Shown: positions 13,091 through 64,000 of the stretch, in pieces
Position numbering within the stretch: the stretch's first letter is position 1
Layout: each line of letters begins with the position of its first letter
Origin: Lota lota
Taxonomy: Eukaryota; Chordata; Actinopteri; Gadiformes; Lotidae
Assembly (NCBI GenBank): GCA_026745465.1
Contig: JACYXH010000317.1
Coordinates: 42,731-106,730 of the forward strand
Direction: 5' to 3'
Length of the DNA stretch: 64,000 bases
Made by a program: the position numbers and the translations under genes
Notes under the pieces: model-generated
Seen by the model: the letters and a program-made list of their open reading frames with translations, nothing else
Database searches by the model: none
Told to the model about the DNA's origin: nothing

Positions 13091-17098
<4,008 letters not shown>

Positions 17099-20840: not shown

Positions 20841-20976
<136 letters not shown>

Positions 20977-23170: not shown

Positions 23171-23689
23171 GAGTTAACTGCCAAAACTCGCGAGCATTTG
23201 TGCACACAAATAATTATTGCAAGGACCATGACTGCCAAAAATCGCGAGCAAAAATGGCCTGGGGCGCACACACAACTAACACATCAGTCGCACATTATTG
23301 TTGAGCCCTTTTGCTGCACTCGCACGCAGTATTTCTCTGCACTCAGCAATTCTATAGCCTGTGAGGAGAAAAGCATTAATTGGGCGTGCACATAGAGTGA
23401 AGCAGCACGAAGTAGTGATGGTGCGATCCCACTTATTTCCTTTCCGATCCGATACAAAGTAAAAACCAGGCTGGTATCACAGATACTAATACCAAAACCG
23501 ATCGTTTTTGCATATTGTATTTCCTGTATCATTTTTACAACTTCTACAATCACAACAACGGAATCTAACAGGGTAGCTGTGTTGTTAAACCTAACCGGGT
23601 AGCCGTGTTGTTAATCCTAACCGGGTAGCTGTGTTGTTAAACCTAACCGGGTAGCCGTGTTGTTAATCCTAACCGGGTAGCCGTGTTGT

Positions 23690-23970
23690 TAAACCTAACC
23701 GGGTACCTAACCGGGTAGCCGTGTTGTTAAACCTAATCATGTAGCCGTGTTGGTAAACCAAACCGGGTAGCTGTGTTGTTACACCTAACCGGGTAGCTGT
23801 GTTGTTAAACCTAACCGGGTAGCTGTGTTGTTAAACCTAACCGGGTACCTAACCGGGTAGCCGTGTTGTTAAACCTAATCATGTAGCCGTGTTGCTAAAC
23901 CAAACCGGGTAGCTGTGTTGTTACACCTAACCGGGTAGCTGTGTTGTTAAACCTAACCGGGTAGCTGTGA
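23690..23970. repeat. 142-bp repeat at the left edge of the array
   Basis: The rare string CCTAATCATGTAGCCG occurs at about 23732 and 23874 (offset 142 = 5 x 26 + 12). The flanking monomers match as well. It was not noticed elsewhere in the array, so it marks an edge-specific duplication. Confidence 0.8.
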
Positions 23971-24087: not shown

Positions 24088-25059
24088 CGTTTAGCTGTGT
24101 TGTTAAACCTGACCGGGTAGCTGTATTGTTAAACCTAATCGGGTAGCTGTGATGTTAAACCTAACCGGGTAGCTGTGTTGTTAAACCTAACCGGGTAGCT
24201 GTATTGTTAAACCTAACCGGGTAGCAGTGTTGCTAAACCTAACCGGGTAGCTGTGTTGTTAAACCTAACCGGGTACCTAACCGGGTAGTCGTGTTGTTAA
24301 ACCTAACCGGGTAGCCGTGTTGCTAAACCAAACCGGGTATCTGTGTAGTTAAACCTAACCGGGTAGCTGTGTTGTTAAACCTAACCGGGTAGCTGTGTTG
24401 TTAAACCAAACCGGGTAGCTGTGATGTTAAACCTAACCGGGTAGTTGTGTTGTTTAACCTAACCGGGTACCTAACCGGGTAGTCGTGTTGTTAAACCTAA
24501 CCGGGTAGCCGTGTTGCTAAACCAAACCGGGTAGCTGTGTAGTTAAACCTAACCGGGTAGCTGTGTTGTTAAACCTAACCGCGTAGCTGTGTGGTTAAAC
24601 CTAACCGGGCAGCTGTGTGGTTAATCCTAAACGTTTAGCTGTGTTGTTAAACCTGACCGGGTAGCTGTATTGTTAAACCTAATGGGGTAGCTGTGATGTT
24701 AAACCTAACCGGGTAGCTGTGTTGTTAAACCTAACCGGGTAGCTGTATTGTTAAACCTAACCGGGTAGCAGTGTTGCTAAACCTAACCGGGTAGCTGTGT
24801 TGTTAAACCTAACCGGGTACCTAACCGGGTAGTCGTGTTGTTAAACCTAACCGGGTAGCCGTGTTGCTAAACCAAACCTGGTAGCTGTGTAGTTAAACCT
24901 AACCGGGTAGCTGTGTTGTTAAACCTAACCGGGTAGCTGTGTTGTTAAACCTAACCAGGTAGCTGTGATGTTAAACCTAACCAGGTAGCTGTGTTGTTTA
25001 ACCTAACCGGGTAGCTGTGTGGTTAAACCTAACCGGGCAGCTGTGTGGTTAATCCTAAC
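24088..25059. repeat. 544-bp higher-order repeat
   Basis: The marker CGTTTAGCTG (after GGGCAGCTGTGTGGTTAATCC) is at 24088 and 24632. The 544-bp offset equals 20 x 26 + 2 x 12, and two 12-mers are indeed present between them. The next marker is at 25060 (428 bp = 16 x 26 + 12), so the third copy has lost monomers. Confidence 0.8.
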
Positions 25060-26699
25060 CGTTTAGCTGTGTTGTTAAACCTAACCGGGTAGCTGTATTG
25101 TTAAACCTAACCGGGTAGCTGTGATGTTAAACCTAACCGGGTAGCTGTGATGTTAAACCTAACCGGGTAGCTGTGTTGTTAAACCTAACCGGGTAGCTGT
25201 GATGTTAAACCTAACCGGGTAGCTGTGTTGTTAAACCTAACCGGTTAGCTGTGTTGTAAAACCTAACCGGGTAGCCATGTTGCTAAACCAAACCGGGTAG
25301 CTGTTTTGTTAAACCTAACCGGGTACCTAACCGGGTAGCATTTTTGGTAAACCTAACCGGGTAGCCGTGTTGCTAAACCAAACCGGGTAGCTGTGTTGTT
25401 AAACCTAACCGGGTAGCAGTGTTGTTAAACCTAACCGGGTAGCTGTGTTGTTAAACCTAACCGGGTAGCTGTGTTGTTAAACCTAACCGGGTAGCTGTGT
25501 TGTTAAACCTAACCGGGTAGCTGTGTTGTTAAACCTAACCGGGTAGCTGTGTTGTTAAACCTAACCAGGTAGCCGTGTTGCTAAACCAAACCGGGTAGCT
25601 GTGTTGTTAAACCTAACCGGGTACCTAACCGGGTAGCCGTGTTGTTAAACCTAACCGGGTAGCCGTGTTGCTAAACCAAACCGGGTAGCCGTGTTGTTAA
25701 ACCTAACCGGGTAGCCGTGTTGTTAAACCTAACCGGGTAGCCGTGTTGTTACACCTAAACAGGTAGCAGTGTTGTTAAATCTAACAGGGTAGCCGTGTTG
25801 TTTAACCTAACCGGGCAGCTGTGTTGGTAATGCTAACCGGGTAGCTGTGTTATTAAACATAACCGTGTAGCTGTGTTGTTAAACCTAACCGGGTAGCTGT
25901 GATGTTAAACCTAACCGGGTAGCTGTGTTGTTAAACCTAACCGGGTAGCTGTGTGGTTAAACCTAACCGGGCAGCTGTGTGGTTAATCCTAACCATTTAG
26001 CTGTGTTGTTAAACCTGACCGGGTAGCTGTATTGTTAAACCTAACCGGGTAGCTGTGATGTTAAACCTAACCGGGTAGCTGTGTTGTTAAACCTAACTGG
26101 GTAGCTGTATTGTTAAACCTAACCGGGTAGCAGTGTTGCTAAACCTAAACAGGTAGCTGTGTTGTTAAACCTAACCGGGTACCTAACCGGGTAGTCGTGT
26201 TGTTAAACCTAACCGGGTAGCCGTGTTGCTAAACAAAACCGGGTAGCTGTGTAGTTAATCCTAACCGTTTAGCTGTGTTGTTAAACCTGAACGGGTAGCT
26301 GTATTGTTAAACCTAACCGGGTAGCTGTGATGTTAAACCTAACCGGGTAGCTGTGTTGTTAAACCTAACCGGGTAGCTGTATTGTTAAACCTAACCGGGT
26401 AGCAGTGTTGCTAAACCTAAACGGGTAGCTGTGTTATTAAACATAACCGTGTAGCTGTGTTGTTAAACCTAACCGGGTAGCTGTGATGTTAAACCTAACC
26501 GGGTAGCTGTGTTGTTTAACCTAACCGGGTAGCTGTGTGGTTAAACCTAACCGGGCAGCTGTGTGGTTAATCCTAACCGTTTAGCTGTGTTGTTAAACCT
26601 AATCGGGTAGCTGTGATGTTAAACCTAACCGGGTAGCTGTGTTGTTAAACCTAACCGGGTAGCTGTATTGTTAAACCTAACCGGGTAGCAGTGTTGCTA

Positions 26700-28850
26700 A
26701 ACCTAACCGGGTAGCTGTGTTGTTAAACCTAACCGGGTACCTAACCGGGTAGTCGTGTTGTTAAACCTAACCGGGTAGCCGTGTTGCTAAACCAAACGGG
26801 GTATCTGTGTAGTTAAACCTAACCGGGTAGCTGTGTTGTTAAACCTAACCGGGTAGCTGTGTTGTTAAACCTAACCGGGTAGCTGTGATGTTAAACCTAA
26901 CCGGGTAGCTGTGTTGTTTAACCTAACCGGGTACCTAACCGGGTAGTCGTGTTGTTAAACCTAACCGGGTAGCCGTGTTGCTAAACCAAACCGGGTAGCT
27001 GTGTATTTAAACCTAACCGGGTAGCTGTGTTGTTAAACCTAACCGCGTAGCTGTGTTGTTAAACCTGACCGGGTAGCTGTGTTGTTAAACCTAATCGGGT
27101 AGCTGTGATGTTAAACCTAACCGGGTAGCTGTGTTGTTAAACCTAACCGGGTAGCTGTATTGTTAAACCTAACCGGGTAGCAGTGTTGCTAAACCTAACC
27201 GGGTAGCTGTGTTGTTAAACCTAACCGGGTACCTAACCGGGTAGTCGTGTTGTTAAACCTAACTGGGTAGCCGTGTTGCTAAACCAAACCGGGTAGCCGT
27301 GTTGTTAAACCTAACCGGGTAGCCGTGTTGTTAAACCTAACCGGGTAGCCGTGTTGTTACACCTAAACAGGTAGCAGTGTTGTTAAATCTAACAGGGTAG
27401 CCGTGTTGTTTAACCTAACCGGGCAGCTGTGTTGGTAATGCTAACCGGGAAGCTGTGTTATTAAACATAACCGTGTAGCTGTGTTGTTAAACCTAACCGG
27501 GTAGCTGTGATGTTAAACCTAACCGGGTAGCTCTGTTGTTAAACCTAACCGGGTAGCTGTGTGGTTAAACCTAACCGGGCAGCTGTGTGGTTAATCCTAA
27601 CCGTTTAGCTGTGTTGTTAAACCTGACCGGGTAGCTGTATTGTTAAACCTAACCGGGTAGCTGTGATGTTAAACCTAACCGGGTAGCTGTGTTGTTAAAC
27701 CTAACCGGGTAGCTGTATTGTTAAACCTAACCGGGTAGCAGTGTTGCTAAACCTAAACGGGTAGCTGTGTTATTAAACATAACCGTGTAGCTGTGTTGTT
27801 AAACCTAACCGGGTAGCTGTGATGTTAAACCTAACCGGGTAGCTGTGTTGTTTAACCTAACCGCGTAGCTGTGTGGTTAATCCTAACCGTTTAGCTGTGT
27901 TGTTAAACCTAATCGGGTAGCAGTGATGTTAAACCTAACCGGGTAGCTGTGTTGTTAAACCTAACCGGGTAGCTGTATTGTTAAACCTAACCGGGTAGCA
28001 GTGTTGCTAAACCTAACCGGGTAGCTGTGTTGTTAAACCTAACCGGGTACCTAACCGGGTAGTCGTGTTGTTAAACCTAACCGGGTAGCCGTGTTGCTAA
28101 ACCAAACGGGGTATCTGTGTAGTTAAACCTAACCGGGTAGCTGTGTTGTTAAACCTAACCGGGTAGCTGTGTTGTTAAACCTAACCGGGTAGCTGTGATG
28201 TTAAACCTAACCGGGTAGCTGTGTTGTTTAACCTAACCGGGTACCTAACCGGGTAGTCGTGTTGTTAAACCTAACCGGGTAGCCGTGTTGCTAAACCAAA
28301 CCGGGTAGCTGTGTAGTTAAACCTAACCGGGTAGCTGTGTAGTTAAACCTAACCGGTTAGCTGTGTTGTAAAACCTAACCGGGTAGCCGTGTTGCTAAAC
28401 CAAACCGGGTAGCTGTTTTGTTAAACCTAACCGGGTACCTAACCGGGTAGCAGTGTTGTTAAACCTAACCGGGTAGCCGTGTTGCTAAACCAAACCGGGT
28501 AGCTGTGTTGTTAAACCTAACCGGGTAGCAGTGTTGTTAAACCTAACCGGGTAGCTGTGTTGTTAAACCTAACCGGGTAGCTGTGTTGTTAAACCTAACC
28601 GGGTAGCTGTGTTGTAAAACCTAACCGGTTAGCCGTGTTGCTAAACCAAACCGGGTAGCTGTTTTGTTAAACCTAACCGGGTACCTAACCGGGTAGCAGT
28701 GTTGTTAAACCTAACCGGGTAGCCGTGTTGCTAAACCAAACCGGGTAGCTGTGTTGTTAAACCTAACCGGGTAGCAGTGTTGTTAACCTAACCGGGTAGC
28801 TGTGTTGTTAAACCTAACCGGGTAGCTGTGTTGTTAAACCTAACCGGGTA
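26700..28850. repeat. 1,310-bp block duplication
   Basis: The rare variant ACCAAACGGGGTATCTG lies at 26791 and 28101. Flanking 12-mers and variant order agree at the same offset (GTAGCTGTGT at 26711 and 28021). A further, indel-laden copy of the marker is at 29247. Confidence 0.75.
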
Positions 28851-29400
28851 GCTGTATTGTTAAACTTAACCGGGTATGCAGTGTTGCTTAAACCTAAACG
28901 GGTAGCTGTGTTATTTAACATAAACCGTGTAGCTGTGTTGTTAAACCTAACCGGGTAGCTGTGATGTTAAAACCTAACCGGGTACGTAGCTGTGTTGTTT
29001 AACCTAACCGCGTAGCTGTGTGGTTAATCCTAACCGTTAGCTGTGTTGTTAAACCTAATCGGGTAGCAGTGATGTTAAACCTAACCGGGTAGCTGTGTTG
29101 TTAAACCTAACGGGTAGCTGTATTGTTAAACCTAACCGGGTAGCAGTGTGCTAAACCTAACCGGGTAGCTGTGTCTTGTTAAACCTAACCGGGTACCTAA
29201 CGGGTAGTCGTGTTGTTAAACCTAACCCGGGTAGCCGTGTTGCTAAACCAAACGGGGTATCTGTGTAGTTAAACCTAACCGGGTAGCTGTGTTGTTAAAC
29301 CTAACCGGGTAGCTGTGTTGTTAAATCTAACGGGTAGCTGTGATGTTAAACCTAACCGGGTAGCTGTGTTGTTTAACCTAACGGGTACCTAACCGGGTAG
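28850..29400. repeat. Indel-rich stretch of the satellite
   Basis: Monomers here carry many single-base gains and losses, for example GGGTATGCAGTG, GTTGCTTAAACC, TTATTTAACATAAACC, GGGTACGTAGC, AACCGTTAGC and several CTAACGGGTA. The corresponding block near 27710-28250 has the same variant order without them. Confidence 0.85.
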
Positions 29401-32400
29401 TGGTGTTGTTAAACCTAACCGGGTAGCCGTGTTGCTAAACCAAACCGGGTAGCTGTGTAGTTAAACCTAACCGGGTAGCTGTGTTGTTAAACCTAACCGC
29501 GTAGTTGTGTGGTTAAACCTAACCGGGCAGCTGTGGTGTTAATCCTAACCGTTTAGCTGTGTTGTTAAACCTGACCGGGTAGCTGTATTGTTAAACATAA
29601 TCGGGTACCTGTGATGTTAAACCTAACCGGGTAGCTGTGTTGTTAAACCTAACCGGGTAGCTGTATTGTTAAACCTAACTGGGTAGCAGTGTTGCTAAAC
29701 CTAACCGGGTAGCTGTGTTGTTAAACCTAACCGGGTACCTAACCGGGTAGTCGTGTTGTTAAACCTAACCGGGTAGCCGTGTTGCTAAACCAAACCGGGT
29801 AGCTGTGTAGTTAAACCTAACCGGGTAGCTGTGTTGTTAAACCTAACCGGGTAGCTGTGTTGTAAAACCTAACCGGGTAGCTGTGTTGTTAAACCTAACC
29901 GGGTAGCTGTGTTGTTAAACCTAACCGGGTAGCTGTGTGGTTAAACCTAACCGGGTAGCTGTGTGGTTAATCCTAACCGTGTAGCTGTGTGGTTAAACCT
30001 AACCGGGTAGCTGTGTTGTTTAACGTAACCGGGTAGCTGTGTTGTTAAACCTAACTGGGTAGCTGTGATGTTAAACCTAACCGGGTAGCTGTGTTGTTAA
30101 ACCTAACCGGTTAGCTGTGTTGTAAAACCTAACCGGGTAGCCGTGTTGCTAAACCAAACCGGGTAGCTGTTTTGTTAAACCTAACCGGGTACCTAACCGG
30201 GTAGCAGTGTTGGTAAACCTAACCGGGTAGCTGTGTTGTTAAACCTAACCGGGTAGCTGTGTGGTTAAACCTAACCGGGTAGCTGTGTGGTTAATCCTAA
30301 CCGTGTAGCTGTGTGGTTAAACCTAACCGGGTAGCTGTGTTGTTTAACCTAACCGGGTAGCTGTGTTGTTAAACCTAACCGGGTAGCTGTGATGTTAAAC
30401 CTAACCGGGTAGCTGTGTTGTTAAACCTAACCGGTTAGCTGTGTTGTAAAACCTAACCGGGTAGCCGTGTTGCTAAACCAAACCGGGTAGCTGTGTTGTT
30501 AAACCTAACCAGGTAGCAGTGTTGCTAAACCAAACCGGGTAGCTGTGTTGTTAAACCTAACCGGGTACCTAACCGGGTAGTCGTGTTGTTAAACCTAACT
30601 GGGTAGCCGTGTTGCTAAACCAAACTGGGTAGCCGTGTTGTTAAACCTAACCGGGTAGCCGTGTTGTTAAACCTAACCGGGTAGCCGTGTTGTTACACCT
30701 AAACAGGTAGCAGTGTTGTTAAATCTAACAGGGTAGCCGTGTTGTTTAACCTAACCGGGCAGCTGTGTTGGTAATGCTAACCGGGTAGCTGTGTTATTAA
30801 ACATAACCGTGTAGCTGTGTTGTTAAACCTAACCGGGTAGCTGTGATGTTAAACCTAACCGGGTAGCTGTGTTGTTAAACCTAACCGGGTAGCTGTGTGG
30901 TTAAACCTAACCGGGCAGCTGTGTGGTTAATCCTAACCGTTTAGCTGTGTTGTTAAACCTGACCGGGTAGCTGTATTGTTAAACCTAACCGGGTAGCTGT
31001 GATGTTAAACCTAACCGGGTAGCTGTGTTGTTAAACCTAACTGGGTAGCTGTATTGTTAAACCTAACCGGGTAGCAGTGTTGCTAAACCTAAACAGGTAG
31101 CTGTGTTGTTAAACCTAACCGGGTACCTAACCGGGTAGTCGTGTTGTTAAACCTAACCGGGTAGCCGTGTTGCTAAACCAAACCGGGTAGCTGTGTAGTT
31201 AATCCTAACCGTTTAGCTGTGTTGTTAAACCTAACCGGGTAGCTGTATTGTTAAACCTAACCGGGTAGCTGTGATGTTAAACCTAACCGGGTAGCTGTGT
31301 TGTTAAACCTAACCGGGTAGCTGTATTGTTAAACCTAACCGGGTAGCTGTATTGTTAAACCTAACCGGGTAGCTGTGATGTTAAACCTAACCGGGTAGCT
31401 GTGTTGTTAAACCTAACCGGGTAGCTGTATTGTTAAACCTAACCGGGTAGCAGTGTTGCTAAACCTAACCGGGTAGCTGTGTTGTTAAACCTAACCGGGT
31501 ATCTGTGTAGTTAAACCTAACCGGGTAGCTTTGTTGTTAAACCTAACCGGGTAGCTGTGTTGTTAAACCTAACCGGGTAGCTGTGATGTTAAACCTAACC
31601 GGTTAGCTGTGTTGTTTAACCTAACCGGGTACCTAACCGGGTAGTCGTGTTGTTAAACCTAACCGGGTAGCCGTGTTGCTAAACCAAACCGGGTAGCTGT
31701 GTAGTTAAACCTAACCGGGTAGCTGTGTTGTTAAACCTAACCGCGTAGTTGTGTGGTTAAACCTAACCGGGCAGCTGTGTGGTTAATCCTAACCGTTTAG
31801 CTGTGTTGTTAAACCTGACTGAGTAGCTGTATTGTTAACCCTAATCGGGTAGCTGTGATGTTAAACCTAACCGGGTAGCTGTGTTGTTAAACCTAAGCGG
31901 GTAGCTGTATTGTTAAACCTAACCGGGTAGCAGTGTTGCTAAACCTAACCGGGTAGCTGTGTTGTTAAACCTAACCGGGTACCTAACCGGGTAGTCGTGT
32001 TGTTAAACCTAACCGGGTAGCCGTGTTGCTAAACCAAACCGGGTAGCTGTGTAGTTAAACCTAACCGGGTAGCTGTGTTGTTAAACGTAACCGGGTAGCT
32101 GTGTTGTTAAACCTAACCAGGTAGCTGTGATGTTAAACCTAACCAGGTAGCTGTGTTGTTTAACCTAACCGGGTAGCTGTGTGGTTAAACCTAACCGGGC
32201 AGCTGTGTGGTTAAACCTAACCGGGCAGCTGTGTTGTTAAACCTAACCGGGTAGCTGTATTGTTAAACCTAACCGGGTAGCTGTGATGTTAAACCTAACC
32301 GGGTAGCTGTGTTGTTAAACCTAACCGGGTAGCTGTGTTGTTAAACCTAACCGGGTAGCTGTGTTGTTAAACCTAACCGGGTAGCTGTGTTGTTAAACCT

Positions 32401-35050
32401 AACCGGGTAGCTGTGTTGTTAAACCTAACCGGGTAGCTGTGTGGTTAAACCTAACCGGGTAGCTGTGTGGTTAATCCTAACCGTGTAGCTGTGTGGTTAA
32501 ACCTAACCGGGTAGCTGTGTTGTTTAACCTAACCGGGTAGCTGTGTTGTTAAACCTAACCGGGTAGCTGTGTTGTTAAACCTAACCGGGTAGCTGTGTTG
32601 TTAAACCTAACCAGGTAGCTGTGATGTTAAACCTAACCAGGTAGCTGTGTTGTTTAACCTAACCGGCTAGCTGTGTGGTTAAACCTAACCGGGCAGCTGT
32701 GTGGTTAATCCTAACCGTTTAGCTGTGTTGTTAAACCTAACCGGGTAGCTGTGATATTAAACCTAACCGGGTAGCTGTGTTGTTAAACCTAACCGGGTAG
32801 CTGTGTTGTTTAACCTAACCGGGTAGCTGTATTGTTAAACCTAACCGGGTAGCAGTGTTGCTAAACCTAACCGGGTAGCTGTGTTGTTAAACCTAACCGG
32901 GTACCTAACAGGGTAGTCGTGTTGTTAAACCTAACCGGGTAGCCGTGTTGCTAAACCAAACCGGGTATCTGTGTAGTTAAACCTAACCGGGTAGCTTTGT
33001 TGTTAAACCTAACCGGGTAGCTGTGTTATTAAACCTAACCGGGTAGCTGTGATGTTAAACCTAACCGGGTAGCTGTGTTGTTTAACCTAACCGGGTACCT
33101 AACCGGGTAGTGGTGTTATTAAACCTAACCGGGTAGCCGTGTTGCTAAACCAAACCGGGTAGCTGTGTAGTTAAACCTAACCGGGTAGCTGTGTTGTTAA
33201 ACCTAACCGCGTAGTTGTGTGGTTAAACCTAACCGGGCAGCTGTGGTGTTAATCCTAACCGTTTAGCTGTGTTGTTAAACCTGACCGGGTAGCTGTATTG
33301 TTAAACATAATCGGGTACCTGTGATGTTAAACCTAACCGGGTAGCTGTGTTGTTAAACCTAACCGGGTAGCTGTATTGTTAAACCTAACCGGGTAGCAGT
33401 GTTGCTAAACCTAACCGGGTAGCTGTGTTGTTAAACCTAACCGGGTACCTAACCGGGTAGTCGTGTTGTTAAACCTAACCGGGTAGCCGTGTTGCTAAAC
33501 CAAACCGGGTAGCTGTGTTGTTAAACCTAACCGGGTAGCTGTGTTGTTAAACCTAACCGGGTAGCTGTGTTGTTAAACCTAACCGGGTAGCTGTGTTGTT
33601 AAACCTAACCGGGTAGCTGTGTTGTTAAACCTAACCGGGTAGCTGTGTGGTTAAACCTAACCGGGTAGCTGTGTGGTTAATCCTAACCGTGTAGCTGTGT
33701 GGTTAAACCTAACCGGGTAGCTGTGTTGTTTAACGTAACCGGGTAGCTGTGTTGTTAAACCTAACTGGGTAGCTGTGATGTTAAACCTAACCGGGTAGCT
33801 GTGTTGTTAAACCTAACCGGTTAGCTGTGTTGTAAAACCTAACCGGGTAGCCGTGTTGCTAAACCAAACCGGGTAGCTGTTTTGTTAAACCTAACCGGGT
33901 ACCTAACCGGGTAGCAGTGTTGGTAAACCTAACCGGGTAGCTGTGTTGTTAAACCTAACCGGGTAGCTGTGTGGTTAAACCTAACCGGGTAGCTGTGTGG
34001 TTAATCCTAACCGTGTAGCTGTGTGGTTAAACCTAACCGGGTAGCTGTGTTGTTTAACCTAACCGGGTAGCTGTGTTGTTAAACCTAACCGGGTAGCTGT
34101 GATGTTAAACCTAACCGGGTAGCTGTGTTGTTAAACCTAACCGGTTAGCTGTGTTGTAAAACCTAACCGGGTAGCCGTGTTGCTAAACCAAACCGGGTAG
34201 CTGTGTTGTTAAACCTAACCAGGTAGCAGTGTTGCTAAACCAAACCGGGTAGCTGTGTTGTTAAACCTAACCGGGTACCTAACCGGGTAGTCGTGTTGTT
34301 AAACCTAACTGGGTAGCCGTGTTGCTAAACCAAACTGGGTAGCCGTGTTGTTAAACCTAACCGGGTAGCCGTGTTGTTAAACCTAACCGGGTAGCCGTGT
34401 TGTTACACCTAAACAGGTAGCAGTGTTGTTAAATCTAACAGGGTAGCCGTGTTGTTTAACCTAACCGGGCAGCTGTGTTGGTAATGCTAACCGGGTAGCT
34501 GTGTTATTAAACATAACCGTGTAGCTGTGTTGTTAAACCTAACCGGGTAGCTGTGATGTTAAACCTAACCGGGTAGCTGTGTTGTTAAACCTAACCGGGT
34601 AGCTGTGTGGTTAAACCTAACCGGGCAGCTGTGTGGTTAATCCTAACCGTTTAGCTGTGTTGTTAAACCTGACCGGGTAGCTGTATTGTTAAACCTAACC
34701 GGGTAGCTGTGATGTTAAACCTAACCGGGTAGCTGTGTTGTTAAACCTAACTGGGTAGCTGTATTGTTAAACCTAACCGGGTAGCAGTGTTGCTAAACCT
34801 AAACAGGTAGCTGTGTTGTTAAACCTAACCGGGTACCTAACCGGGTAGTCGTGTTGTTAAACCTAACCGGGTAGCCGTGTTGCTAAACCAAACCGGGTAG
34901 CTGTGTAGTTAATCCTAACCGTTTAGCTGTGTTGTTAAACCTGACCGGGTAGCTGTATTGTTAAACCTAACCGGGTAGCTGTGATGTTAAACCTAACCGG
35001 GTAGCTGTGTTGTTAAACCTAACCGGGTAGCTGTATTGTTAAACCTAACC
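29400..35050. repeat. Block duplication at 3,710-bp offset
   Basis: About 1.95 kb at 29400-31340 recurs at 33110-35050. Rare variants agree at the same offset: GTAGTGGTGTT (about 29398/33108), TTTAACGTAACC (30021/33731) and the ACACCTAAAC cassette (30695/34405). The copies part near 31345/35055, where CTGTATTG is followed by different monomers. 3,710 = 139 x 26 + 8 x 12. Confidence 0.85.
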
Positions 35051-37019
35051 GGGTAGCAGTGTTGCTAAACCTAAACGGGTAGCTGTGTTGTTAAACCTAA
35101 CCGGGTACCTAACCGGGTAGTCGTGTTGTTAAACCTAACCGGGTAGCCGTGTTGTAAAACCAAACCGGGTAGCTGTGTAGTTAAACCTAACCGGGTAGCT
35201 GTGTTGGTATACCTAACCGGATAGCTGTGTTGTTAAACCTAACCGGGTAGCTGTGATGTTAAACCTAACCGGGTAGCTGTGTTGTTTAACCTAACCGGGT
35301 AGCTGTGTGGTTAAACCTAACCGGGCAGCTGTGTGGTTAATCCTAACCGTTTAGCTGTGTTGTTAAACCTAATCGGGTAGCTGTGATGTTAAACCTAACC
35401 GGGTAGCTGTGTTGTTAAACCTAACCGGGTAGCTGTATTGTTAAACCTAACCGGGTAGCAGTGTTGCTAAACCTAACCGGGTAGCTGTGTTGTTAAACCT
35501 AACCGGGTACCTAACCGGGTAGTCGTGTTGTTAAACCTAACCGGGTAGCCGTGTTGCTAAACCAAACCGGGTATCTGTGTAGTTAAACCTAACCGGGTAG
35601 CTTTGTTGTTAAACCTAACCGGGTAGCTGTGTTGTTAAACCTAACCGGGTAGCTGTGATGTTAAACCTAACCGGGTAGCTGTGTTGTTTAACCTAACCGG
35701 GTACCTAACCGGGTAGTCGTGTTGTTAAACCTAACCGGGTAGCTGTGTTGTTAAACCTAACCAGGTAGCTGTGATGTTAAACCTAACCAGGTAGCTGTGT
35801 TGTTTAACCTAACCGGGTAGCTGTGTGGTTAAACCTAACCGGGCAGCTGTGTGGTTAATCCTAACCGTTTAGCTGTGTTGTTAAACCTAACCGGTTAGCT
35901 GTATTGTTAAACCTAACCGGGTAGCTGTGATGTTAAACCTAACCGGGTAGCTGTGATGTTAAACCTAACCGGGTAGCTGTGTTGTTAAACCTAACCGGGT
36001 AGCTGTGATGTTAAACCTAACCGGGTAGCTGTGTTGTTAAACCTAACCGGTTAGCTGTGTTGTAAAACCTAACCGGGTAGCCGTGTTGCTAATCCAAACC
36101 GGGTAGCTGTTTTGTTAAACCTAACCGGGTACCTAACCGGGTAGCAGTGTTGTTAAACCTAACCGGGTAGCCGTGTTGCTAAACCAAACTGGGTAGCTGT
36201 GTTGTTAAACCTAACCGGGTAGCAGTGTTGTTAAACCTAACCGGGTAGATGTGTTGTTAAACCTAACCGGGTAGCTGTGTTGTTAAACCTAACCGGGTAG
36301 CTGTGTTGTTAAACCTAACCGGGTAGCTGTGTTGTTAAACCTAACCGGGTAGCTGTGTTGTTAAACCTAACCAGGTAGCCGTGTTGCTAAACCAAACCGG
36401 GTAGCTGTGTTGTTAAACCTAACCGGGTACCTAACCGGGTAGCCGTGTTGTTAAACCTAACCGGGTAGCCGTGTTGCTAAACCAAACCGGGTAGCCGTGT
36501 TGTTACACCTAACCAGGTAGCCGTGTTGTTAAATCTAACAGGGTAGCCGTGTTGTTTAACCTAACTGGGCAGCTGTGTTGGTAATGCTAACCGGGTAGCT
36601 GTGTTATTAAACATAACCGTGTAGCTGTGTTGTTAAACCTAACCGGGTAGCTGTGATGTTAAACCTAACCGGGTAGCTGTGTTGTTAAACCTAACCGGGT
36701 AGCTGTGTTGTTAAACCTAACTGGGTAGCTGTATTGTTAAACCTAACCGGGTAGCAGTGTTGCTAAACCTAAACAGGTAGCTGTGTTGTTAAACCTAACC
36801 GGGTACCTAACCGGGTAGTCGTGTTGTTAAACCTAACCGGGTAGCCGTGTTGCTAAACCAAACCGGGTAGCTGTGTAGTTAATCCTAACCGTTTAGCTGT
36901 GTTGTTAAACCTGACCGGGTAGCTGTATTGTTAAACCTAACCGGGTAGCTGTGATGTTAAACCTAACCGGATAGCTGTGTTGTTAAACCTAACCGGGTAG
37001 CTGTATTGTTAAACCTAAC

Positions 37020-53800: not shown

Positions 53801-56800
53801 CCTAACCGGGTAGCTTTGTTGTTAAACCTAACCGGGTAGCTGTGTTGTTAAACCTAACCGGGTAGCTGTGATGTTAAACCTAACCGGGTAGCTGTGTTGT
53901 TTAACCTAACCGGGTACCTAACCGGGTAGTCGTGTTGTTAAACCTAACCGGGTAGCCGTGTTGCTAAACCAAACCGGGTAGCTGTGTAGTTAAACCTAAC
54001 CGGGTAGCTGTGTTGTTAAACCTAACCGCGTAGTTGTGTGGTTAAACCTAACCGGGCAGCTGTGTGGTTAATCCTAACCGTTTAGCTGTGTTGTTAAACC
54101 TGACCGGGTAGCTGTATTGTTAAACCTAACCGGGTAGCTGTGTTGTTAAACCTAACCGGGTAGCTGTATTGTTAAACCTAACCGGGTAGCAGTGTTGCTA
54201 AACCTAACCGGGTAGCTGTGTTGTTAAACCTAACCGGGTACCTAACCGGGTAGTCGTGTTGTTAAACCTAACCGGGTAGCCGTGTTGCTAAACCAAACCG
54301 GGTAGCTGTGTAGTTAAACCTAACCGGGTAGCTGTGTTGTTAAACCTAACCGGGTAGCTGTGTTGTTAAACCTAACCAGGTAGCTGTGATGTTAAACCTA
54401 ACCAGGTTAATGTGTTGTTAAACCTAACCGGGTAGCTGTATTGTTAAACCTAACCGGGTAGCCGTGTTGCTAAACCAAACCGGGTATCTGTGTAGTTAAA
54501 CCTAACCGGGTAGCTTTGTTGTTAAACCTAACCGGGTAGCTGTGTTGTTAAACCTAACCGGGTAGCTGTGATGTTAAACCTAACCGGGTAGCTGTGTTGT
54601 TTAACCTAACCGGGTACCTAACCGGGTAGTCGTGTTGTTAAACCTAACCGGGTAGCCGTGTTGCTAAACCAAACCGGGTAGCTGTGTAGGTAAACCTAAC
54701 CGGGTAGCTGTGGTGTTAAACCTAACCGCGTAGTTGTGTGGTTAAACCTAACCGGGCAGCTGTGTGGTTAATCCTAACCGTTTAGCTGTGTTGTTAAACC
54801 TGACCGGGTAGCTGTATTGTTAAACCTAATCGGGTAGCTGTGATGTTAAACCTAACCGGGTAGCTGTGTTGTTAAACCTAACCGGGTAGGTGTATTGTTA
54901 AACCTAACCGGGTAGCAGTGTTGCTAAACCTAACCGGGTAGCTGTGTTGTTAAACCTAACCGGGTACCTAACCGTGTAGTCGTGTTGTTAAACCTAACAG
55001 GGTAGCCGTGTTGCTAAACCAAACCGGGTAGCTGTGTAGTTAAACCTAACCAGGTAGCTGTGTTGTTAAACCTAACCGGGTAGCTGTGTTGTTAAACCTA
55101 ACCAGGTAGCTGTGATGTTAAACCTAACCAGGTAGCTGTGTTGTTTAACCTAACCGGGTAGCTGTGTGGTTAAACCTAACCGGGCAGCTGTGTGGTTAAT
55201 CCTAACCATTTAGCTGTGTTGTTAAACCTAACCGGGTAGCTGTATTGTTAAACCTAACCGGGTAGCTGTGATGTTAAACCTAACCGGGTAGCTGTGTTGT
55301 TAAACCTAACCGGGTAGCTGCGTTGTTAAACCTAAACGGGTAGCTGTGATGTTAAACCTAACCGGGTAGCTGTGATGTTAAACCTAACCGGGTAGCTGTG
55401 TTGTTAAACCTAACCAATTAGCTGTGTTGTAAAACCTAACCGGGTAGCCGTGTTGCTAAACCAAACCGGGTAGCTGTTTTGTTCAACCTAACCGGGTACC
55501 TAACCGGGTAGCAGTGTTGGTAAACCTAACCGGGTAGCCGTGTTGCTAAACCAAACCGGGTAGCTGTGTTGTTAAACCTAAGAGGGTAGCAGTGTTGTTA
55601 AACCTAACCGGGTAGCTGTGTTGTTAAACCTAACCGGGTAGCTGTGTTGTTAAACCTAACCGGGTAGCTGTGTTGTTAAACCTAACCGGGTAGCTGTGTT
55701 GTTAAACCTAACCGGGTAGCTGTGTTGTTAAACCTAACCGGGTAGCAGTGTTGCTAAACCAAACCGAGTAGCTGTGTTGTTAAACCTAACCGGGTACCTA
55801 ACCGGGTAGTCGTGTTGTTAAACCTAACTGGGTAGCCGTGTTGCTAAACCAAACCGGGTAGCCGTGTTGTTAAACCTAACCGGGTAGCCGTGTTGTTAAA
55901 CCTAACCGGGTAGTCGTGTTGTTACACCTAAACAGGTAGCAGTGTTGTTAAATCTAACAGGGTAGCCGTGTTGTTTAACCTAACCGGGCAGCTGTGTTGG
56001 TAATGCTAACCGGGTATCTGTGTTATTAAACATAACCGTGTAGCTGTGTTGTTAAACCTAACCGGGTAGCTGTGATGTTAAACCTAACTGAGTAGCTGTG
56101 TTGTTAAACCTAACCGGGTAGCTGTGTGGTTAAACCTAACCGGGCAGCTGTGTGGTTAATCCTAACCGTTTAGCTGTGTTGTTAAACCTGACCGGGTAGC
56201 TGTATTGTTAAACCTAACCGGGTAGCTGTGATGTTAAACCTAACCGGGTAGCTGTGTTGTTAAACCTAACCGGGTAGCTGTATTGTTAAACCTAACCGGG
56301 TAGCAGTGTTGCTAAACCTAAACGGGTAGCTGTGTTGTTAAACCTAACCGGATACCTAACCGGGTAGTCGTGTTGTTAAAGCTAACCGGGTAGCCGTGTT
56401 GCTAAACCAAACCGGGTAGCTGTGTAATTAAACCTAACCGGGTAGCTGTGTTGGTATACCTAACCGGATAGCTGTGTTGTTAAACCTAACCGGGTAGCTA
56501 TGATGTTAAACCTAACCGGGTAGCTGTGTTGTTTAACCTAACCGGGTAGCTGTGTGGTTAAACCTAACCGGGTAGCCGTGTTGCTAAACCAAACCGGGTA
56601 GCTGTGTTGTTAAACCTCACCGGGTACCTAACCGGGTAGTCGTGTTGTTAAACCTAACCGGGTAGCCGTGTTACTAAACCAAACCGGGTAGCTGTGTAGT
56701 TAAATCTAACCGGGTAGCTGTGTTGGTATACCTAACCGGATAGCTGTGTTGTTAAACCTTACCGGGTAGCTGTGATGGTAATCCTAACCGGGTAGCTTAG

Positions 56801-58009
56801 TTATTAAACATAACCGTGTAGCTGTGTTGTTAAACCTAACCGGGTAGCCGTGTTGTTAAACCTAACCGGGCAGCTGTGTTGTTAAACCTAACCGGGCAGC
56901 TTTGTTATTAATCCTAAACGGGTAGCTGTGTTGTTAATCCTAACCGGGTAGCTCTATTCTTAAACCTAACCGGGTTGCCGTGTTGCTAAACCAAACCGGG
57001 TAGCTTTGTTGTGAAACCTAACCGGGTAGCAGTGTTGTTAAACCTAATCGGGTAGCCGTGTTGCAAAACCAAACCGGGTAGCTGTGTTGTTAAAACTAAC
57101 CGGGTAGCAGTGTTGTTAAACCTAACCGGGTAGCCGTGTTGTTTAACCTAACAGGGTAGCCGTGTTGTTAAACCTAACAGGGTAGCCGTGTTGTCAAACA
57201 TAACAGGGTAGCCGTGTTGTTACACCTAAACAGGTAGCAGTGTTGTTAAATCTAACAGGGTAGCCGTGTTGTTTAACCTAACCGGGCAGCTGTGTTGGTA
57301 ATGCTAACCGGGTAGCTGTGTTGTTAAATCTAACAGGGTAGCCGTGTTGTTTAACCTAACAGGGTAGCTGTGTTGTTAAACCTAAACGGTCAGCTGTGTT
57401 GTTAAACCTAACCGGGCAGCTGTGTTGTTAAACCTAACAGGGTAGCCGTGTTGTTTAACCTAACAGGGTGGGCATGTTGTTAAACCTAACCGGGTACCTA
57501 ACCGGGTAGCCGTGTTGTTAAACCTAACCGGGTAGCAGTGTTGTTAAACCTAACCGGGTAGCTGTGTTGTTAATCCTAATCGGGTAGCCGTGTTGTTAAA
57601 CCTAACCGGGTAGCCGTGTTGTTACACCTAACCAGGTAGCCGTGTTGTTAAATCTAACAGGGTAGCCGTGTTGTTAAACCTAACCGGGTAGCCGTGTTGC
57701 TAAACCAAACCGGGTAGCCGTGTTGTTAAACCTAACCGGGTACCTAACCGGGTAGCCGTGTTGTTAAACCTAACCGGGTAGCTGCGTTGTTTAATCTAAC
57801 GGGGTAGCTGTGTTGTTAAACCTAACCGGGTACCTAACCGGGTAGCCGTGTTGTTAAACCTAACCGGGTAGCCGTGTTGCTAAACCAAACTGGGTAGCCG
57901 TGTTGTTAAACCTAACCGGGTAGCAGTGTTGTTAAACCTAACCGGGTAGCTGTGTTGCTAAACCTAACCGGGTAGCTGTGTTGCTAAACCTAACCGGGTA
58001 GCTGTGTTG

Positions 58010-61000
58010 TTAATCCTAACCGGGTAGCTCTATTCTTAAACCTAACCGGGTTGCCGTGTTGCTAAACCAAACCGGGTAGCTTTGTTGTGAAACCTAACCG
58101 GTAGCAGTGTTGTTAAACCTAACCGGGTAGCCGTGTTGCAAAACCAAACCGGGTAGCTGTGTTGTTAAACCTAACCGGGTAGCAGTGTTGTTAAACCTAA
58201 CCGGGTAGCCGTGTTGTTTAACCTAACAGGGTAGCCGTGTTGTTAAACCTAACAGGGTAGCCGTGTTGTCAAACATAACAGGGTAGCCGTGTTGTTACAC
58301 CTAAACAGGTAGCAGTGTTGTTAAATCTAACAGGGTAGCCGTGTTGTTTAACCTAACCGGGCAGCTGTGTTGGTAATGCTAACCGGGTAGCTGTGTTGTT
58401 AAATCTAACAGGGTAGCCGTGTTGTTTAACCTAACAGGGTAGCTGTGTTGTTAAACCTAAACGGTCAGCTGTGTTGTTAAACCTAACCGGGCAGCTGTGT
58501 TGTTAAACCTAACAGGGTAGCCGTGTTGTTTAACCTAACAGGGTGGGCATGTTGTTAAACCTAACCGGGTACCTAACCGGGTAGCCGTGTTGTTAAACCT
58601 AACCGGGTAGCAGTGTTGTTAAACCTAACCGGGTAGCTGTGTTGTTAATCCTAATCGGGTAGCCGTGTTGTTAAACCTAACCGGGTAGCCGTGTTGTTAC
58701 ACCTAACCAGGTAGCCGTGTTGTTAAATCTAACAGGGTAGCCGTGTTGTTAAACCTAACCGGGTAGCCGTGTTGCTAAACCAAACCGGGTAGCCGTGTTG
58801 TTAAACCTAACCGGGTACCTAACCGGGTAGCCGTGTTGTTAAACCTAACCGGGTAGCTGTGTTGTTTAATCTAACGGGGTAGCTGTGTTGTTAAACCTAA
58901 CCGGGTACCTAACCGGGTAGCCGTGTTGTTAAACCTAACCGGGTAGCCGTGTTGCTAAACCAAACCGGGTAGCCGTGTTGTTAAACCTAACCGGGTAGCA
59001 GTGTTGTTAAACCTAACCGGGTAGCTGTGTTGCTAAACCTAACCGGGTAGCTGTGTTGCTAAACCTAACCGGGTAGCAGTGTTGTTAAACCTAACTGGGT
59101 AGCAGTGTTGTTAAATCTAACAGGGTAGCCGTGTTGTTTATCCTAACAGGGTAGCCTTGTTGTTAAACCTAACAGGGTAGCTGTGTTGTTAAACCTAACA
59201 GGGTAGCTGTGTTGTTAATCCTAACCGGGTAGCTGTGATGTTAAACCTAACCGGGTAGCTTTGTTGTGAAACCTAACCGGGTAGCAGTGTTGTTAAACCT
59301 AACCGGGTAGCTGTGTTGTAAAACCTAACTGGGTACCTAACCGGGTAGCAGTGTTGTTAAACCTAACCGGGCAGCTGTGTTGTTAATCCTAACCGGGTAG
59401 CAGTGTTGTAAAACTAAACCGGGTACCTAACCGGGTAGCAGTGTTGTTAAACCTAACTGGGCAGCTGTGTTGTTAAACCTAACCGCGTAGCAGTGTTGTT
59501 AAACCTAACGGGGTAGCTGTGTTGTAAAACCTAACCGGGTACCTAACCGGGTAGCCGTGTTGTTAAACCTAATAGGGTAGATGTGTTGTTAAACCTAACC
59601 GGGTAGCAGTGTTGTTAAACCTAACCGGGTAGCTGTGTTGTTAATCCTAACCGGGTAGCCGTGTTGTTAAACCTAACCGGGTAGCCGTGTTGTTAAACCT
59701 AACCGGGTAGCCGTGTTGTTAAACCTAACCGGGCAGCTGTGTTGTTAATCCTAACCGGGTAGCTGTGTTGTTAAACCTAACCGGGTAGCTGTGATGTTAA
59801 ACCTAACCAGGTAGCTGTGATGTTAAACCTATCCGGGTAGTTGTGTTGTTCAATCTAACAGGGTAGCCGTGTTGTTTAACCTAACAGGGTAGCCGTGTTG
59901 TTAAACCTAACAGGGTAGCTGTGTTGTTATTCCTAACCGGGTAGCTGTGTTGTTAATCCTAACCGGGTAGCTGTGTTGTTAATCATAACTGGGTAGCTGT
60001 GTTGTTAAACCTAACCGGGTAGCTGTGTTGTTAAACCTAACTGGGTAGCCGTGTTGTTAAACCTAACCGGGTAGCCGTGTTGCTAAACCAAACCGGGTAG
60101 CCGTGTTGTTAAACCTAACCGGGTAGCAGTGTTGTTAACCCTAACCGGGTAGCTGTGTTGCTAAACCTAACCGGGTAGCTGTGTTGTAAAACCTAACTGG
60201 GTACCTAACCGGGTAGCAGTGTTGTTAAACCTAACCGGGCAGCTGTGTTGTTAATCCTAACCGGGTAGCAGTGTTGTAAAACTAAACCGGGTACCTAACC
60301 GGGTAGCAGTGTTGTTAAACCTAACTGGGCAGCTGTGTTGTTAAACCTAACCGCGTAGCAGTGTTGTTAAACCTAACGGGGTAGCTGTGTTGTAAAACCT
60401 AACCGGGTACCTAACCGGGTAGCCGTGTTGTTAAACCTAACAGGGTAGATGTGTTGTTAAACCTAACCGGGTAGCAGTGTTGTTAAACCTAACCGGGTAG
60501 CTGTGTTGTTAATCCTAACCGGGTAGCCGTGTTGTTAAACCTAACCGGGTAGCCGTGTTGTTAAACCTAACCGGGTAGCCGTGTTGTTAAACCTAACCGG
60601 GCAGCTGTGTTGTTAATCCTAACCGGGTAGCTGTGTTGTTAAACCTAACCGGGTAGCTGTGATGTTAAACCTAACCAGGTAGCTGTGATGTTAAACCTAT
60701 CCGGGTAGTTGTGTTGTTAAATCTAACAGGGTAGCCGTGTTGTTTAACCTAACAGGGTAGCAGTGTTGTTAAACCTAACAGGGTAGCTGTGTTGTTAATC
60801 CTAACCGGGTAGCTGTGTTGTTAAACCTAACCGGGTAGCTGTGTTGTTAATCATAACTGGGTAGCTGTGTTGTTAAACCTAACCGGGTAGCTGTGTTGTT
60901 AAACCTAACCGGGTAGCTGTGTTGTTAAACCTAACCGGGTAGCCGTGTTGCTAAACCAAACTGGGTAGCCGTGTTGTTAAACCTAACCGGGTAGCAGTGT

Positions 61001-64000
61001 TGTTAAACCTAACCGGGTAGCTGTGTTGCTAAACCTAACCGGGTAGCAGTGTTGTTAAACCTAACTGGGTAGCAGTGTTGTTAAATCTAACAGAGTAGCC
61101 GTGTTGTTTAACCTAACAGGGTAGCCTTGTTGTTAAACCTAACAGGGTAGCTGCGTTGTTTAATCTAACGGGGTAGCTGTGTTGTTAAACCTAACCGGGT
61201 ACCTAACCGGGTAGCCGTGTTGTTAAACCTAACCGGGTAGCCGTGTTGTTAAACCTAACCGGGTAGCTGTGTTGCTAAACCTAACCGGGTAGCTGTGTTG
61301 CTAAACCAAACCGGGTAGCTGTGTAGTTAAATCTAACCGGGTAGCTGTGTTGGTATACCTAACCGGATAGCTGTGTTGTTAAACCTTACCGGGTAGCTGT
61401 GATGGTAATCCTAACCGGGTAGCTTAGTTATTAAACATAACCGTGTAGCTGTGTTGTTAAACCTAACCGGGTAGCCGTGTTGTTAAACCTAACCGGGCAG
61501 CTGTGTTGTTAAACCTAACCGGGCAGCTTTGTTATTAATCCTAAACGGGTAGCTGTGTTGTTAATCCTAACCGGGTAGCTCTATTCTTAAACCTAACCGG
61601 GTAGCCGTGTTGCTAAACCAAACCGGGTAGCTTTGTTGTGAAACCTAACCGGGTAGCAGTGTTGTTAAACCTAATCGGGTAGCCGTGTTGCAAAACCAAA
61701 CCGGGTAGCTGTGTTGTTAAAACTAACCGGGTAGCAGTGTTGTTAAACCTAACCGGGTAGCCGTGTTGTTTAACCTAACAGGGTAGCCGTGTTGTTAAAC
61801 CTAACAGGGTAGCCGTGTTGTCAAACATAACAGGGTAGCCGTGTTGTTACACCTAAACAGGTAGCAGTGTTGTTAAATCTAACAGGGTAGCCGTGTTGTT
61901 TAACCTAACCGGGCAGCTGTGTTGGTAATGCTAACCGGGTAGCTGTGTTGTTAAATCTAACAGGGTAGCCGTGTTGTTTAACCTAACAGGGTAGCTGTGT
62001 TGTTAAACCTAAACGGTCAGCTGTGTTGTTAAACCTAACCGGGCAGCTGTGTTGTTAAACCTAACAGGGTAGCCGTGTTGTTTAACCTAACAGGGTGGGC
62101 ATGTTGTTAAACCTAACCGGGTACCTAACCGGGTAGCCGTGTTGTTAAACCTAACCGGGTAGCAGTGTTGTTAAACCTAACCGGGTAGCTGTGTTGTTAA
62201 TCCTAATCGGGTAGCCGTGTTGTTAAACCTAACCGGGTAGCCGTGTTGTTACACCTAACCAGGTAGCCGTGTTGTTAAATCTAACAGGGTAGCCGTGTTG
62301 TTAAACCTAACCGGGTAGCCGTGTTGCTAAACCAAACCGGGTAGCCGTGTTGTTAAACCTAACCGGGTACCTAACCGGGTAGCCGTGTTGTTAAACCTAA
62401 CCGGGTAGCTGTGTTGTTTAATCTAACGGGGTAGCTGTGTTGTTAAACCTAACCGGGTACCTAACCGGGTAGCCGTGTTGTTAAACCTAACCGGGTAGCC
62501 GTGTTGCTAAACCAAACAGGGTAGCCGTGTTGTTAAACCTAACCGGGTAGCAGTGTTGTTAAACCTAACCGGGTAGCTGTGTTGCTAAACCTAACCGGGT
62601 AGCTGTGTTGCTAAACCTAACCGGGTAGCAGTGTTGTTAAACCTAACTGGGTAGCAGTGTTGTTAAATCTAACAGGGTAGCCGTGTTGTTTAACCTAACA
62701 GGGTAGCCTTGTTGTTAAACCTAACAGGGTAGCTGTGTTGTTAAACCTAACCGGGTAGCTGTGTTGTTAATCCTAACCGGGTAGCTGTGATGTTAAACCT
62801 AACCGGGTAGCTTTGTTGTGAAACCTAACCGGGTAGCAGTGTTGTTAAACCTAACCGGGTAGCTGTGTTGTAAAACCTAACTGGGTACCTAACCGGGTAG
62901 CAGTGTTGTTAAACCTAACCGGGCAGCTGTGTTGTTAATCCTAACCGGGTAGCAGTGTTGTAAAACTAAACCGGGTACCTAACCGGGTAGCAGTGTTGTT
63001 AAACCTAACTGGGCAGCTGTGTTGTTAAACCTAACCGCGTAGCAGTGTTGTTAAACCTAACGGGGTAGCTGTGTTGTAAAACCTAACCGGGTACCTAACC
63101 GGGTAGCCGTGTTGTTAAACCTAATAGGGTAGATGTGTTGTTAAACCTAACCGGGTAGCAGTGTTGTTAAACCTAACCGGGTAGCTGTGTTGTTAATCCT
63201 AACCGGGTAGCCGTGTTGTTAAACCTAACCGGGTAGCCGTGTTGTTAAACCTAACCGGGTAGCCGTGTTGTTAAACCTAACCGGGCAGCTGTGTTGTTAA
63301 TCCTAACCGGGTAGCTGTGTTGTTAAACCTAACCGGGTAGCTGTGATGTTAAACCTAACCAGGTAGCTGTGATGTTAAACCTATCCGGGTAGTTGTGTTG
63401 TTCAATCTAACAGGGTAGCCGTGTTGTTTAACCTAACAGGGTAGCCGTGTTGTTAAACCTAACAGGGTAGCTGTGTTGTTAATCCTAACCGGGTAGCTGT
63501 GTTGTTAATCCTAACCGGGTAGCTGTGTTGTTAATCATAACTGGGTAGCTGTGTTGTTAAACCTAACCGGGTAGCTGTGTTGTTAAACCTAACTGGGTAG
63601 CCGTGTTGTTAAACCTAACCGGGTAGCCGTGTTGCTAAACCAAACCGGGTAGCCGTGTTGTTAAACCTAACCGGGTAGCAGTGTTGTTAACCCTAACCGG
63701 GTAGCTGTGTTGCTAAACCTAACCGGGTAGCTGTGTTGTAAAACCTAACTGGGTACCTAACCGGGTAGCAGTGTTGTTAAACCTAACCGGGCAGCTGTGT
63801 TGTTAATCCTAACCGGGTAGCAGTGTTGTAAAACTAAACCGGGTACCTAACCGGGTAGCAGTGTTATTAAACCTAACTGGGCAGCTGTGTTGTTAAACCT
63901 AACCGCGTAGCAGTGTTGTTAAACCTAACGGGGTAGCTGTGTTGTAAAACCTAACCGGGTACCTAACCGGGTAGCCGTGTTGTTAAACCTAACAGGGTAG
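58010..64000. repeat. Block duplication at 3,552-bp offset, running off the right edge
   Basis: About 58010-60448 matches 61562-64000. Paired markers are 58297/61849 (ACACCTAAAC), 59331/62883 (GGGTACCTAA after AACT), 59831/63383 (ATCCGGGTAGTTG) and 60289/63841. 3,552 = 132 x 26 + 10 x 12. Confidence 0.85.
59310..60908. repeat. 868-bp tandem higher-order repeat
   Basis: 59310-60040 matches 60178-60908. Markers ATCCGGGTAGTTG (59831/60699) and CTGGGTACC (59330/60198) are 868 bp apart = 32 x 26 + 3 x 12, and exactly three 12-mers occur per period. The two copies differ at only a few bases. Confidence 0.85.

What the first reader, a model, noticed from the sequence alone, without database searches (positions are those of the whole stretch)
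23562..64000. A 40-kb-plus single-family satellite built from two monomer lengths (26 and 12 bp)
Seen: the array is uninterrupted for 63% of the window, in one orientation, with a 12-bp monomer that equals the 26-mer minus CTGTGTTGTTAAAC-type 14 bp, scattered at characteristic places (usually before TCGTGTTG or CCGTGTTG monomers). Inference: the short monomer arose once by internal deletion and was then spread by block duplication. I do not recognise this monomer as a named satellite.
Basis: partly seen in the sequence, partly recalled or inferred. Interest (0 to 1): 0.8.

Follow-up and report, generated by a model that had tools for sequence, protein, structure and literature searches.

The report
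New 26-bp satellite with 12-bp short monomer
A long stretch of short repeated DNA at the edge of an assembled piece of a (probably fish) genome is a real satellite repeat with two unit lengths; it is a new example of a well-known kind, useful mainly because its short unit is a marker that lets one follow how such arrays grow and spread.

Summary
Window 23565-64000 is one unbroken, one-orientation tandem array of 1615 units: 1505 of the 26-bp type (1461 exactly 26 bp), 109 full 12-bp units and a cut last unit. The 12-mer is the 26-mer minus 14 bp. The array stops only because the contig stops, so 40.4 kb is a minimum. The same satellite, with 12-mers, occurs on at least 14 contigs of this 575-Mb genome, reaching a contig end in 12 of 14.

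The deletion looks older than this array: 12-mers occur on at least 14 contigs, and a shared neighbour context in the window, on C1 and (weakly) in samples of 11 other contigs points to one origin. The spread is layered: a 12-mer followed by a TCG monomer is almost private to this array (51 of 52 exact places), within shifting higher-order repeats (strongest lags 90, 127, 142 and 147 units). That is ordinary unequal exchange.

A 3'-truncated rhoc copy (1.4% diverged) lies beside a second array on C127. No CENP-B box and no published monomer were found. Centromeric or subtelomeric position was not decided. New family, known kind.

The parts
23565..64000 (+). 26-bp/12-bp satellite array: 1505 units of 26-bp type, 109 full 12-mers and a cut last unit; runs to the contig end
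   Evidence: TRF; segmentation; contig end
23695..23706 (+). First 12-bp unit (CTAACCGGGTAC), the 26-mer minus GCTGTGTTGTTAAA; 109 such units in the array, mean spacing 373 bp
26067..35044 (+). Higher-order domain with lag of 147 units (3710 bp): 29415-31334 repeats at 33125-35044 with 4 mismatches
33605..41121 (+). Higher-order domain with lag of 90 units (about 2.25 kb)
   Evidence: 37-38% identical units at lag 90 against a median of 3-4%
43618..53660 (+). Higher-order domain with lags of 82-94 units (weaker, 22-23% identical units)
24265..55812 (+). Span of the exact 12-mer + TCG-monomer subtype (51 places; the only other exact place in the genome is on C127)
   Evidence: C317:66995-98542 minus 42730
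56162..64000 (+). Distal domain with different monomers (few consensus copies); lag 142 units strongest at the end; 58171-60436 repeats at 61723-63988 with 5 mismatches
13094..16984 (-). rhoc-type Rho GTPase gene, coding exons 16984-16826, 15356-15237, 14606-14475, 13273-13094; 14387-18658 has a partial copy beside a second array on contig C127
   Evidence: tblastn; Pfam Ras
118..2903 (+). mov10-type helicase exons (Mov-10_helical and AAA_11 hits)

Best explanation
This is a satellite DNA family of short (26-bp) monomers, with no sign of coding, that sits in long arrays at many places in the genome and evolves by unequal exchange and gene conversion. Shown: a 12-bp unit equal to the 26-mer minus 14 bp is present on at least 14 contigs. 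Shown: within arrays, particular 12-mer/neighbour combinations are locally abundant and, in the window array, whole blocks are repeated, giving nearly array-private subtypes and shifting higher-order repeats; in the window array this is the TCG subtype. Inferred: the 12-mer came from one deletion, before the satellite spread between loci. Inferred: spread between loci is rare and can involve flanking DNA, as the truncated rhoc copy beside the C127 array suggests. Inferred: the 12-mer has no job of its own and is a passenger; the array as a whole is probably packed as heterochromatin in chromosome regions that the assembly cannot cross.
For: Unbroken array and unit counts. One ORF of 64 aa is the only closed ORF of 40 aa or more. 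20 block pairs with 0-1% mismatches. Best local lags (147, 90, 127, 167, 92, 82, 185 and 142 among them) with 16-39% identical units against medians of 1-5%. The neighbourhood of the 12-mer decays within about 4 units, as for other variants of 20-79 copies. Block ends are not clearly concentrated at 12-mers: 2 of 17 left ends and 3 of 18 right ends against 6.8% of units. TCG subtype 51 of 52 on C317 and 1 on C127; 12-mer+CTG subtype 34 of 53 on C65 and C462. Shared 12-mer context in the window, C1 and, weakly, samples of 11 other contigs. The only long matches of the rhoc region (14380-18660) are on C317 and C127, both beside the satellite.
Against: The 12-mer's last bases vary (GGGTAC, GGGTAG, GGGTAA, GGATAC), and C1 has its own ATAATCGGGTAC lineage (6 of 17 called 12-mers), so more than one deletion event is not excluded. 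In samples of the other 11 contigs the context test is weak (13 of 24, P 0.017; 8 of 24 unclassed; +2 position P 0.15). The 14 contigs were found with patterns that contain the 12-mer, so arrays without it would be missed. No chromatin, FISH or read-depth evidence was available. Array ends are assembly ends, so long-range structure is unseen.
Confidence: 0.8

Rival explanations
1. Centromeric or pericentromeric functional satellite: the family marks or builds the centromere on many chromosomes.
For: At least 14 contigs carry it, reaching a contig end in 12 of 14. It has higher-order repeats. The flanks of three contigs (C1, C462, C777) look to me like Gypsy-type retroelement fragments, as is common in pericentromeres (recalled). 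C28, the one telomere-bearing contig end sampled, does not carry it in the sampled stretches that could be read.
Against: No CENP-B box: 0 full 9-of-9 core matches in the window and C1 arrays; the consensus reaches 7 of 9, P 0.071 against shuffles. Total assembled amount is small (about 0.34 Mb by my estimate). No CENP-A data. Gypsy calls are by eye; Pfam gave no hit for the two C1 flank peptides.
Confidence: 0.35
2. Subtelomeric satellite next to chromosome ends.
For: Arrays end contigs; the monomer holds CCTAACC, which resembles telomeric CCCTAACCC, but not significantly (8 of 12, P 0.115).
Against: Orientation towards the flank is mixed: 5 contigs one way, 9 the other. No (TTAGGG)2 in the window or in the 23.7-kb C1 array. 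The telomere of C28 is followed, after masked bases, by a different, G-rich repeat. The direct telomere-satellite junction search did not complete.
Confidence: 0.3
3. Recurrent deletion: the 12-mer arises repeatedly at a hotspot instead of once.
For: Variable final bases and separate lineages in C1; weak context signal in the 11-contig sample.
Against: Only one common short length class; shared neighbour context in the window and on C1. The deletion junction has only about 1 nt of microhomology, by reading the sequence.
Confidence: 0.15
4. Assembly artefact: the array length or block copies are made by the assembler.
For: The last 2.27 kb before the contig end is a near copy of sequence 3.55 kb upstream. 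Other contig ends show what looks like read noise: C65 decays into poly-C and C38 folds back on itself; C1 has many 25/27-bp units (78 and 70 of 903).
Against: The window array has only 44 of 1505 26-type units with a different length, so it looks well polished. Other contigs carry the same family.
Confidence: 0.05

Closest known systems
Human alpha-satellite higher-order repeats, especially 'cascading' HORs (PMC11157248; passages seen, abstract included)
   Same: Tandem monomers in higher-order repeats where monomer types recur within one HOR copy, with variant copies made by duplication and deletion of sub-blocks.
   Different: About 171-bp monomers with 20-40% divergence between types and megabase arrays; here 26 bp, about 6% from consensus, 40 kb, no single dominant HOR, no CENP-B box, centromere role untested.
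Short satellites of fish satellitomes, e.g. Astyanax paranae (PMC5635008; passages seen, abstract included)
   Same: Short repeat units are common there: 45 families of 6-365 bp, median 59 bp, with several clustered ones of about 20 bp.
   Different: Their monomer sequences were not compared here; the monomer core strings occur in no held paper text.
Meloidogyne satDNAs with simple and HOR arrays (PMC3694981; passages seen)
   Same: Simple and higher-order arrays of satellite monomers side by side, with shuffling between them.
   Different: [quoted passage not shown] here no full box was found and block ends do not clearly favour the 12-mer.

Membership tests
Satellite DNA | Long head-to-tail array of one monomer family | tested here: met
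   1615 units over 40.4 kb, no break
Satellite DNA | Present at many loci of the genome | tested here: met
   At least 14 contigs; 3329 + 3371 exact 20-mer places
Satellite DNA | Non-coding | tested here: met
   One ORF of 64 aa is the only closed ORF of 40 aa or more
Satellite DNA | Heterochromatic | not testable with these tools
   No chromatin data
Higher-order repeat satellite | Multi-monomer blocks more alike than neighbouring monomers | tested here: met
   16-39% identical units at the best local lags against 1-5% median; 20 block pairs of 0.5-2.3 kb with 0-16 mismatches
Higher-order repeat satellite | One dominant HOR period | tested here: not met
   Best lag changes along the array: 344, 147, 143, 90, 127, 167, 92, 82, 185, 43, 142
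CENP-B-box centromeric satellite | NTTCGNNNNANNCGGGN in monomers (motif recalled) | tested here: not met
   0 full matches in the window and C1 arrays; other arrays not tested
Subtelomeric satellite | Adjacent to telomere repeats | tested here: inconclusive
   C28 telomere end lacks it in readable samples; junction search unanswered
Named satellite in print | Monomer sequence published | tested here: not met
   0 of 5.39 million held papers contain CTAACCGGGTAG or CTACCCGGTTAG; 5 contain an 11-mer part and have unrelated titles (listing only). Dfam/Repbase not searched

The most novel reading that the evidence does not exclude
The family is the (peri)centromeric satellite of this species. Its single-origin 12-bp deletion unit, present on at least 14 contigs, together with array-private subtypes and the rhoc fragment shared by two arrays, is a natural record of DNA exchange between non-homologous centromere regions, which can be dated through about 1.4% divergence of the shared flank.
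Probability: 0.25. Interest if true: 0.5.

Novelty: new member of a known kind. Interest (0 to 1): 0.27.

Why it matters
It is an unpublished-looking satellite family with an unusually clean marker, a fixed-length deletion unit that is found across arrays and yet linked to array-private subtypes. That makes the order of events (deletion, spread, local amplification) readable from one genome. It does not change the picture of how satellites evolve.

Tried and rejected
CENP-B box: 7 of 9 core positions, P 0.071 by shuffling, and no full match. Telomere-like motif: P 0.115. A grainyhead-like AACCGGTT match reached 7 of 8 with P 0.008, but it was one of four motifs tried and recalled by me, so I give it no weight. 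The 24-bp minisatellite at 1513-1782 as a relative of the 26-mer: P 0.038, one of two tested, not convincing. The 26-mer as 12-mer plus a diverged copy: no similarity (P 0.72). The 12-mer as recombination end point: 2 of 17 and 3 of 18 block ends at a 12-mer, 29% and 33% within one unit against 20% background, small numbers. Identifying the species from assembly size in papers: no hit. Rfam on window 1-24000: no hit at the gathering score. Pfam on ten peptides: four family hits in three peptides (Mov-10_helical, AAA_11, and Ras with a sub-threshold Roc), none in the other seven, which include two C1 flank peptides. A 196-bp satellite at C450 as a general centromere repeat: of 141 exact 30-mer places the first 100 were listed, on C450 (42) and C692 (58).

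Full report
WHAT IS THERE. The window is G000:C317:42731-106730 of a 575,287,041-base assembly in 867 contigs. It holds mov10- and rhoc-type genes at left and the satellite from 23565 to its right edge. That edge is the end of contig C317 (106,730 bases).

UNITS. TRF finds one array at 23565-63961. Segmentation into the two unit types gives 1615 units: 1505 of 26-bp type (1461 exactly 26 bp) and 110 of 12-bp type, the last of which is a cut 26-mer. Of the 109 real 12-mers, 95 are exactly CTAACCGGGTAC. The reverse-orientation words searched for were not found. 26-bp units differ from consensus by about 5-8% in successive 100-unit bins; position 14 is the most variable (consensus T in 70% in the window and 70% on C1).

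SPACING AND HIGHER ORDER. The 109 12-mers are a mean 13.9 26-mers apart (CV 0.54; random placement 1.02) and unusually even: 6-8 per 100 units in each of 16 bins. I take the cause to be higher-order structure. 20 block pairs of 0.5-2.3 kb recur with 0-1% mismatches (e.g. 58171-60436 and 61723-63988, 5 mismatches; 29415-31334 and 33125-35044, 4 mismatches). The best lag changes along the array, from left to right: 344 (weak, 16%), 147 (34-39%), 143, 90 (37-38%), 127 (34%), 167, 92, 82, 185, 43, 142 (38%) units. So it is a patchwork of local higher-order repeats, not one fixed period. From about 56 kb the monomer set changes: consensus copies fall to 0-6 per bin (the last bin is short) and the exact 12-mer+TCG subtype has stopped.

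ELSEWHERE IN THE GENOME. The exact 20-mer GTGTTGTTAAACCTAACCGG has 3329 + 3371 places; 438 are in the window and 529 in the first 30 kb of C1. The exact 12-mer junction has 171 + 235 = 406 places, of which the first 100 were listed, C1 to C127. Complete lists of three subtypes (CAG 15, CTG 53, TCG 52 places) and the partial list together give 14 contigs: C1, C38, C65, C86, C98, C127, C134, C274, C312, C317, C432, C462, C777, C786. Contigs without a 12-mer, or with only other subtypes beyond the listed 100, could be missed. I read samples, not whole arrays, except on C1 and in the window. By those samples the array reaches the contig end in 12 of 14; C65 begins in poly-C that grades into satellite, and C462 begins in masked bases. 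Summing sampled extents gives about 0.34 Mb if arrays are continuous between samples, i.e. about 0.06% of the assembly (my arithmetic). None of 28 other contig ends taken without regard to the satellite carried it; two of the 28 were wholly masked and one was 75% masked.

ORIGIN OF THE 12-MER. On C1, 920 units include 17 called 12-mers: 6 are exactly ATAATCGGGTAC, 4 exactly CTAACCGGGTAC, the rest single variants, one of them a poor 6-bp call. For other contigs I used 49 samples (14.7 kb) from 11 contigs; C462 and the array-edge or noisy pieces L082, L123, L129, L131 and L138 were not used. In them 12 bp is again the only common short length, with 24 12-mers; the samples of C65 and C777 held none, although exact 12-mers lie elsewhere on them. 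The next unit after a 12-mer is CC/TC type in 89 of 109 (window), 11 of 17 (C1) and 13 of 24 (others), against backgrounds of 20%, 16% and 32%; the second next unit is CC in 82 of 108, 8 of 17 and 9 of 20; the preceding unit is mostly CT (97 of 110, 13 of 17, 14 of 21). This shared context fits one deletion followed by spread. It is weak in the 11-contig sample (P 0.017 at +1, 0.15 at +2). Recurrent deletion is not excluded.

ARRAY-PRIVATE AMPLIFICATION. 12-mer+TCG: 51 of 52 exact places on C317 and 1 on C127. 12-mer+CTG: 34 of 53 on C65 (18) and C462 (16). So at least three arrays hold a locally abundant combination, most simply amplified after the family had spread.

A SHARED FLANK. C127 (719,598 bases) starts with the satellite (seen in samples from 1 to 15456, minus strand). 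Next to it lies a copy of window 14387-18658 and of 20754-20871 with gaps. It carries rhoc coding exons 1-3; exon 4 was not found in the 10 kb read, and exon 2 has one changed base. Divergence is 41 of 2985 aligned bases, and 5 of 623 in a second piece. Beyond it C127 has a SET-domain ORF that I recognise as setmar-like (not searched). In a genome search with 14380-18660, the only long matches are C317 and C127; the other hits are under 200 bases and fall on the exons or the GT/CA tracts, and I take the exon ones for Rho paralogues (12 candidates scored). The array junction is not shared: C127's array starts near the (CA)n tract that lies about 2.6 kb from the array in the window. Either a 3'-truncated copy of rhoc was duplicated to a satellite locus, or one contig is misjoined, or this is an unusual allele. 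I cannot tell which, but the single TCG subtype copy on C127 agrees with a shared history.

FUNCTION. No long coding frame, no full CENP-B box in the two arrays tested, no significant telomere likeness. The most likely account is a passenger satellite evolving by unequal exchange. A centromeric role is possible and untested.

LITERATURE. CTAACCGGGTAG and its reverse complement occur in no held paper. Short fish satellites (PMC5635008) and cascading higher-order repeats (PMC11157248) are the closest described kinds; of both I saw passages, abstract included. PMC3694981 was seen in passages. Other papers were seen in search listings only; two searches returned nothing.

Noticed in passing
window 14387-18658 and L082 (C127:15478-19716): 3'-truncated rhoc copy (exons 1-3, exon 4 not found, about 1.4% diverged) beside a second satellite array on C127; duplication, allele or misjoin not settled.
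   Followed up: partly
C28:1-22300 (L062-L070): Contig starts with (CCCTAA)n telomere repeats followed, after masked bases, by a G-rich GGAGGAAGGAC-type minisatellite sampled out to 22.3 kb.
   Followed up: partly
C450:15-22142 and C692:334-43948 (listed places): A different 196-bp satellite at the start of two contigs (100 of 141 places listed).
   Followed up: partly
C1 from 23.7 kb (L015), C462 from 24.2 kb (L131), C777 before 77.55 kb (L129): Flanks of three arrays look like fragments of Gypsy-type retroelements (by eye; Pfam gave no hit for two C1 flank peptides).
   Followed up: no
C65:1-3000 (L049, L123), C38:5150-5450 (L138): What looks like assembly noise: satellite decays into poly-C at the start of C65, and C38 folds back from plus to minus orientation across a noisy junction.
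   Followed up: no
window 1513-1891: 24-bp and 21-bp minisatellites among the mov10 exons; the 24-mer shares GTTAAAC and AACCTA with the satellite, P 0.038.
   Followed up: partly
window 22696-23083: Stretch just left of the array matches C1:33807-34199 at 74%, so a dispersed repeat probably borders the array; the genome search of this flank did not complete.
   Followed up: partly
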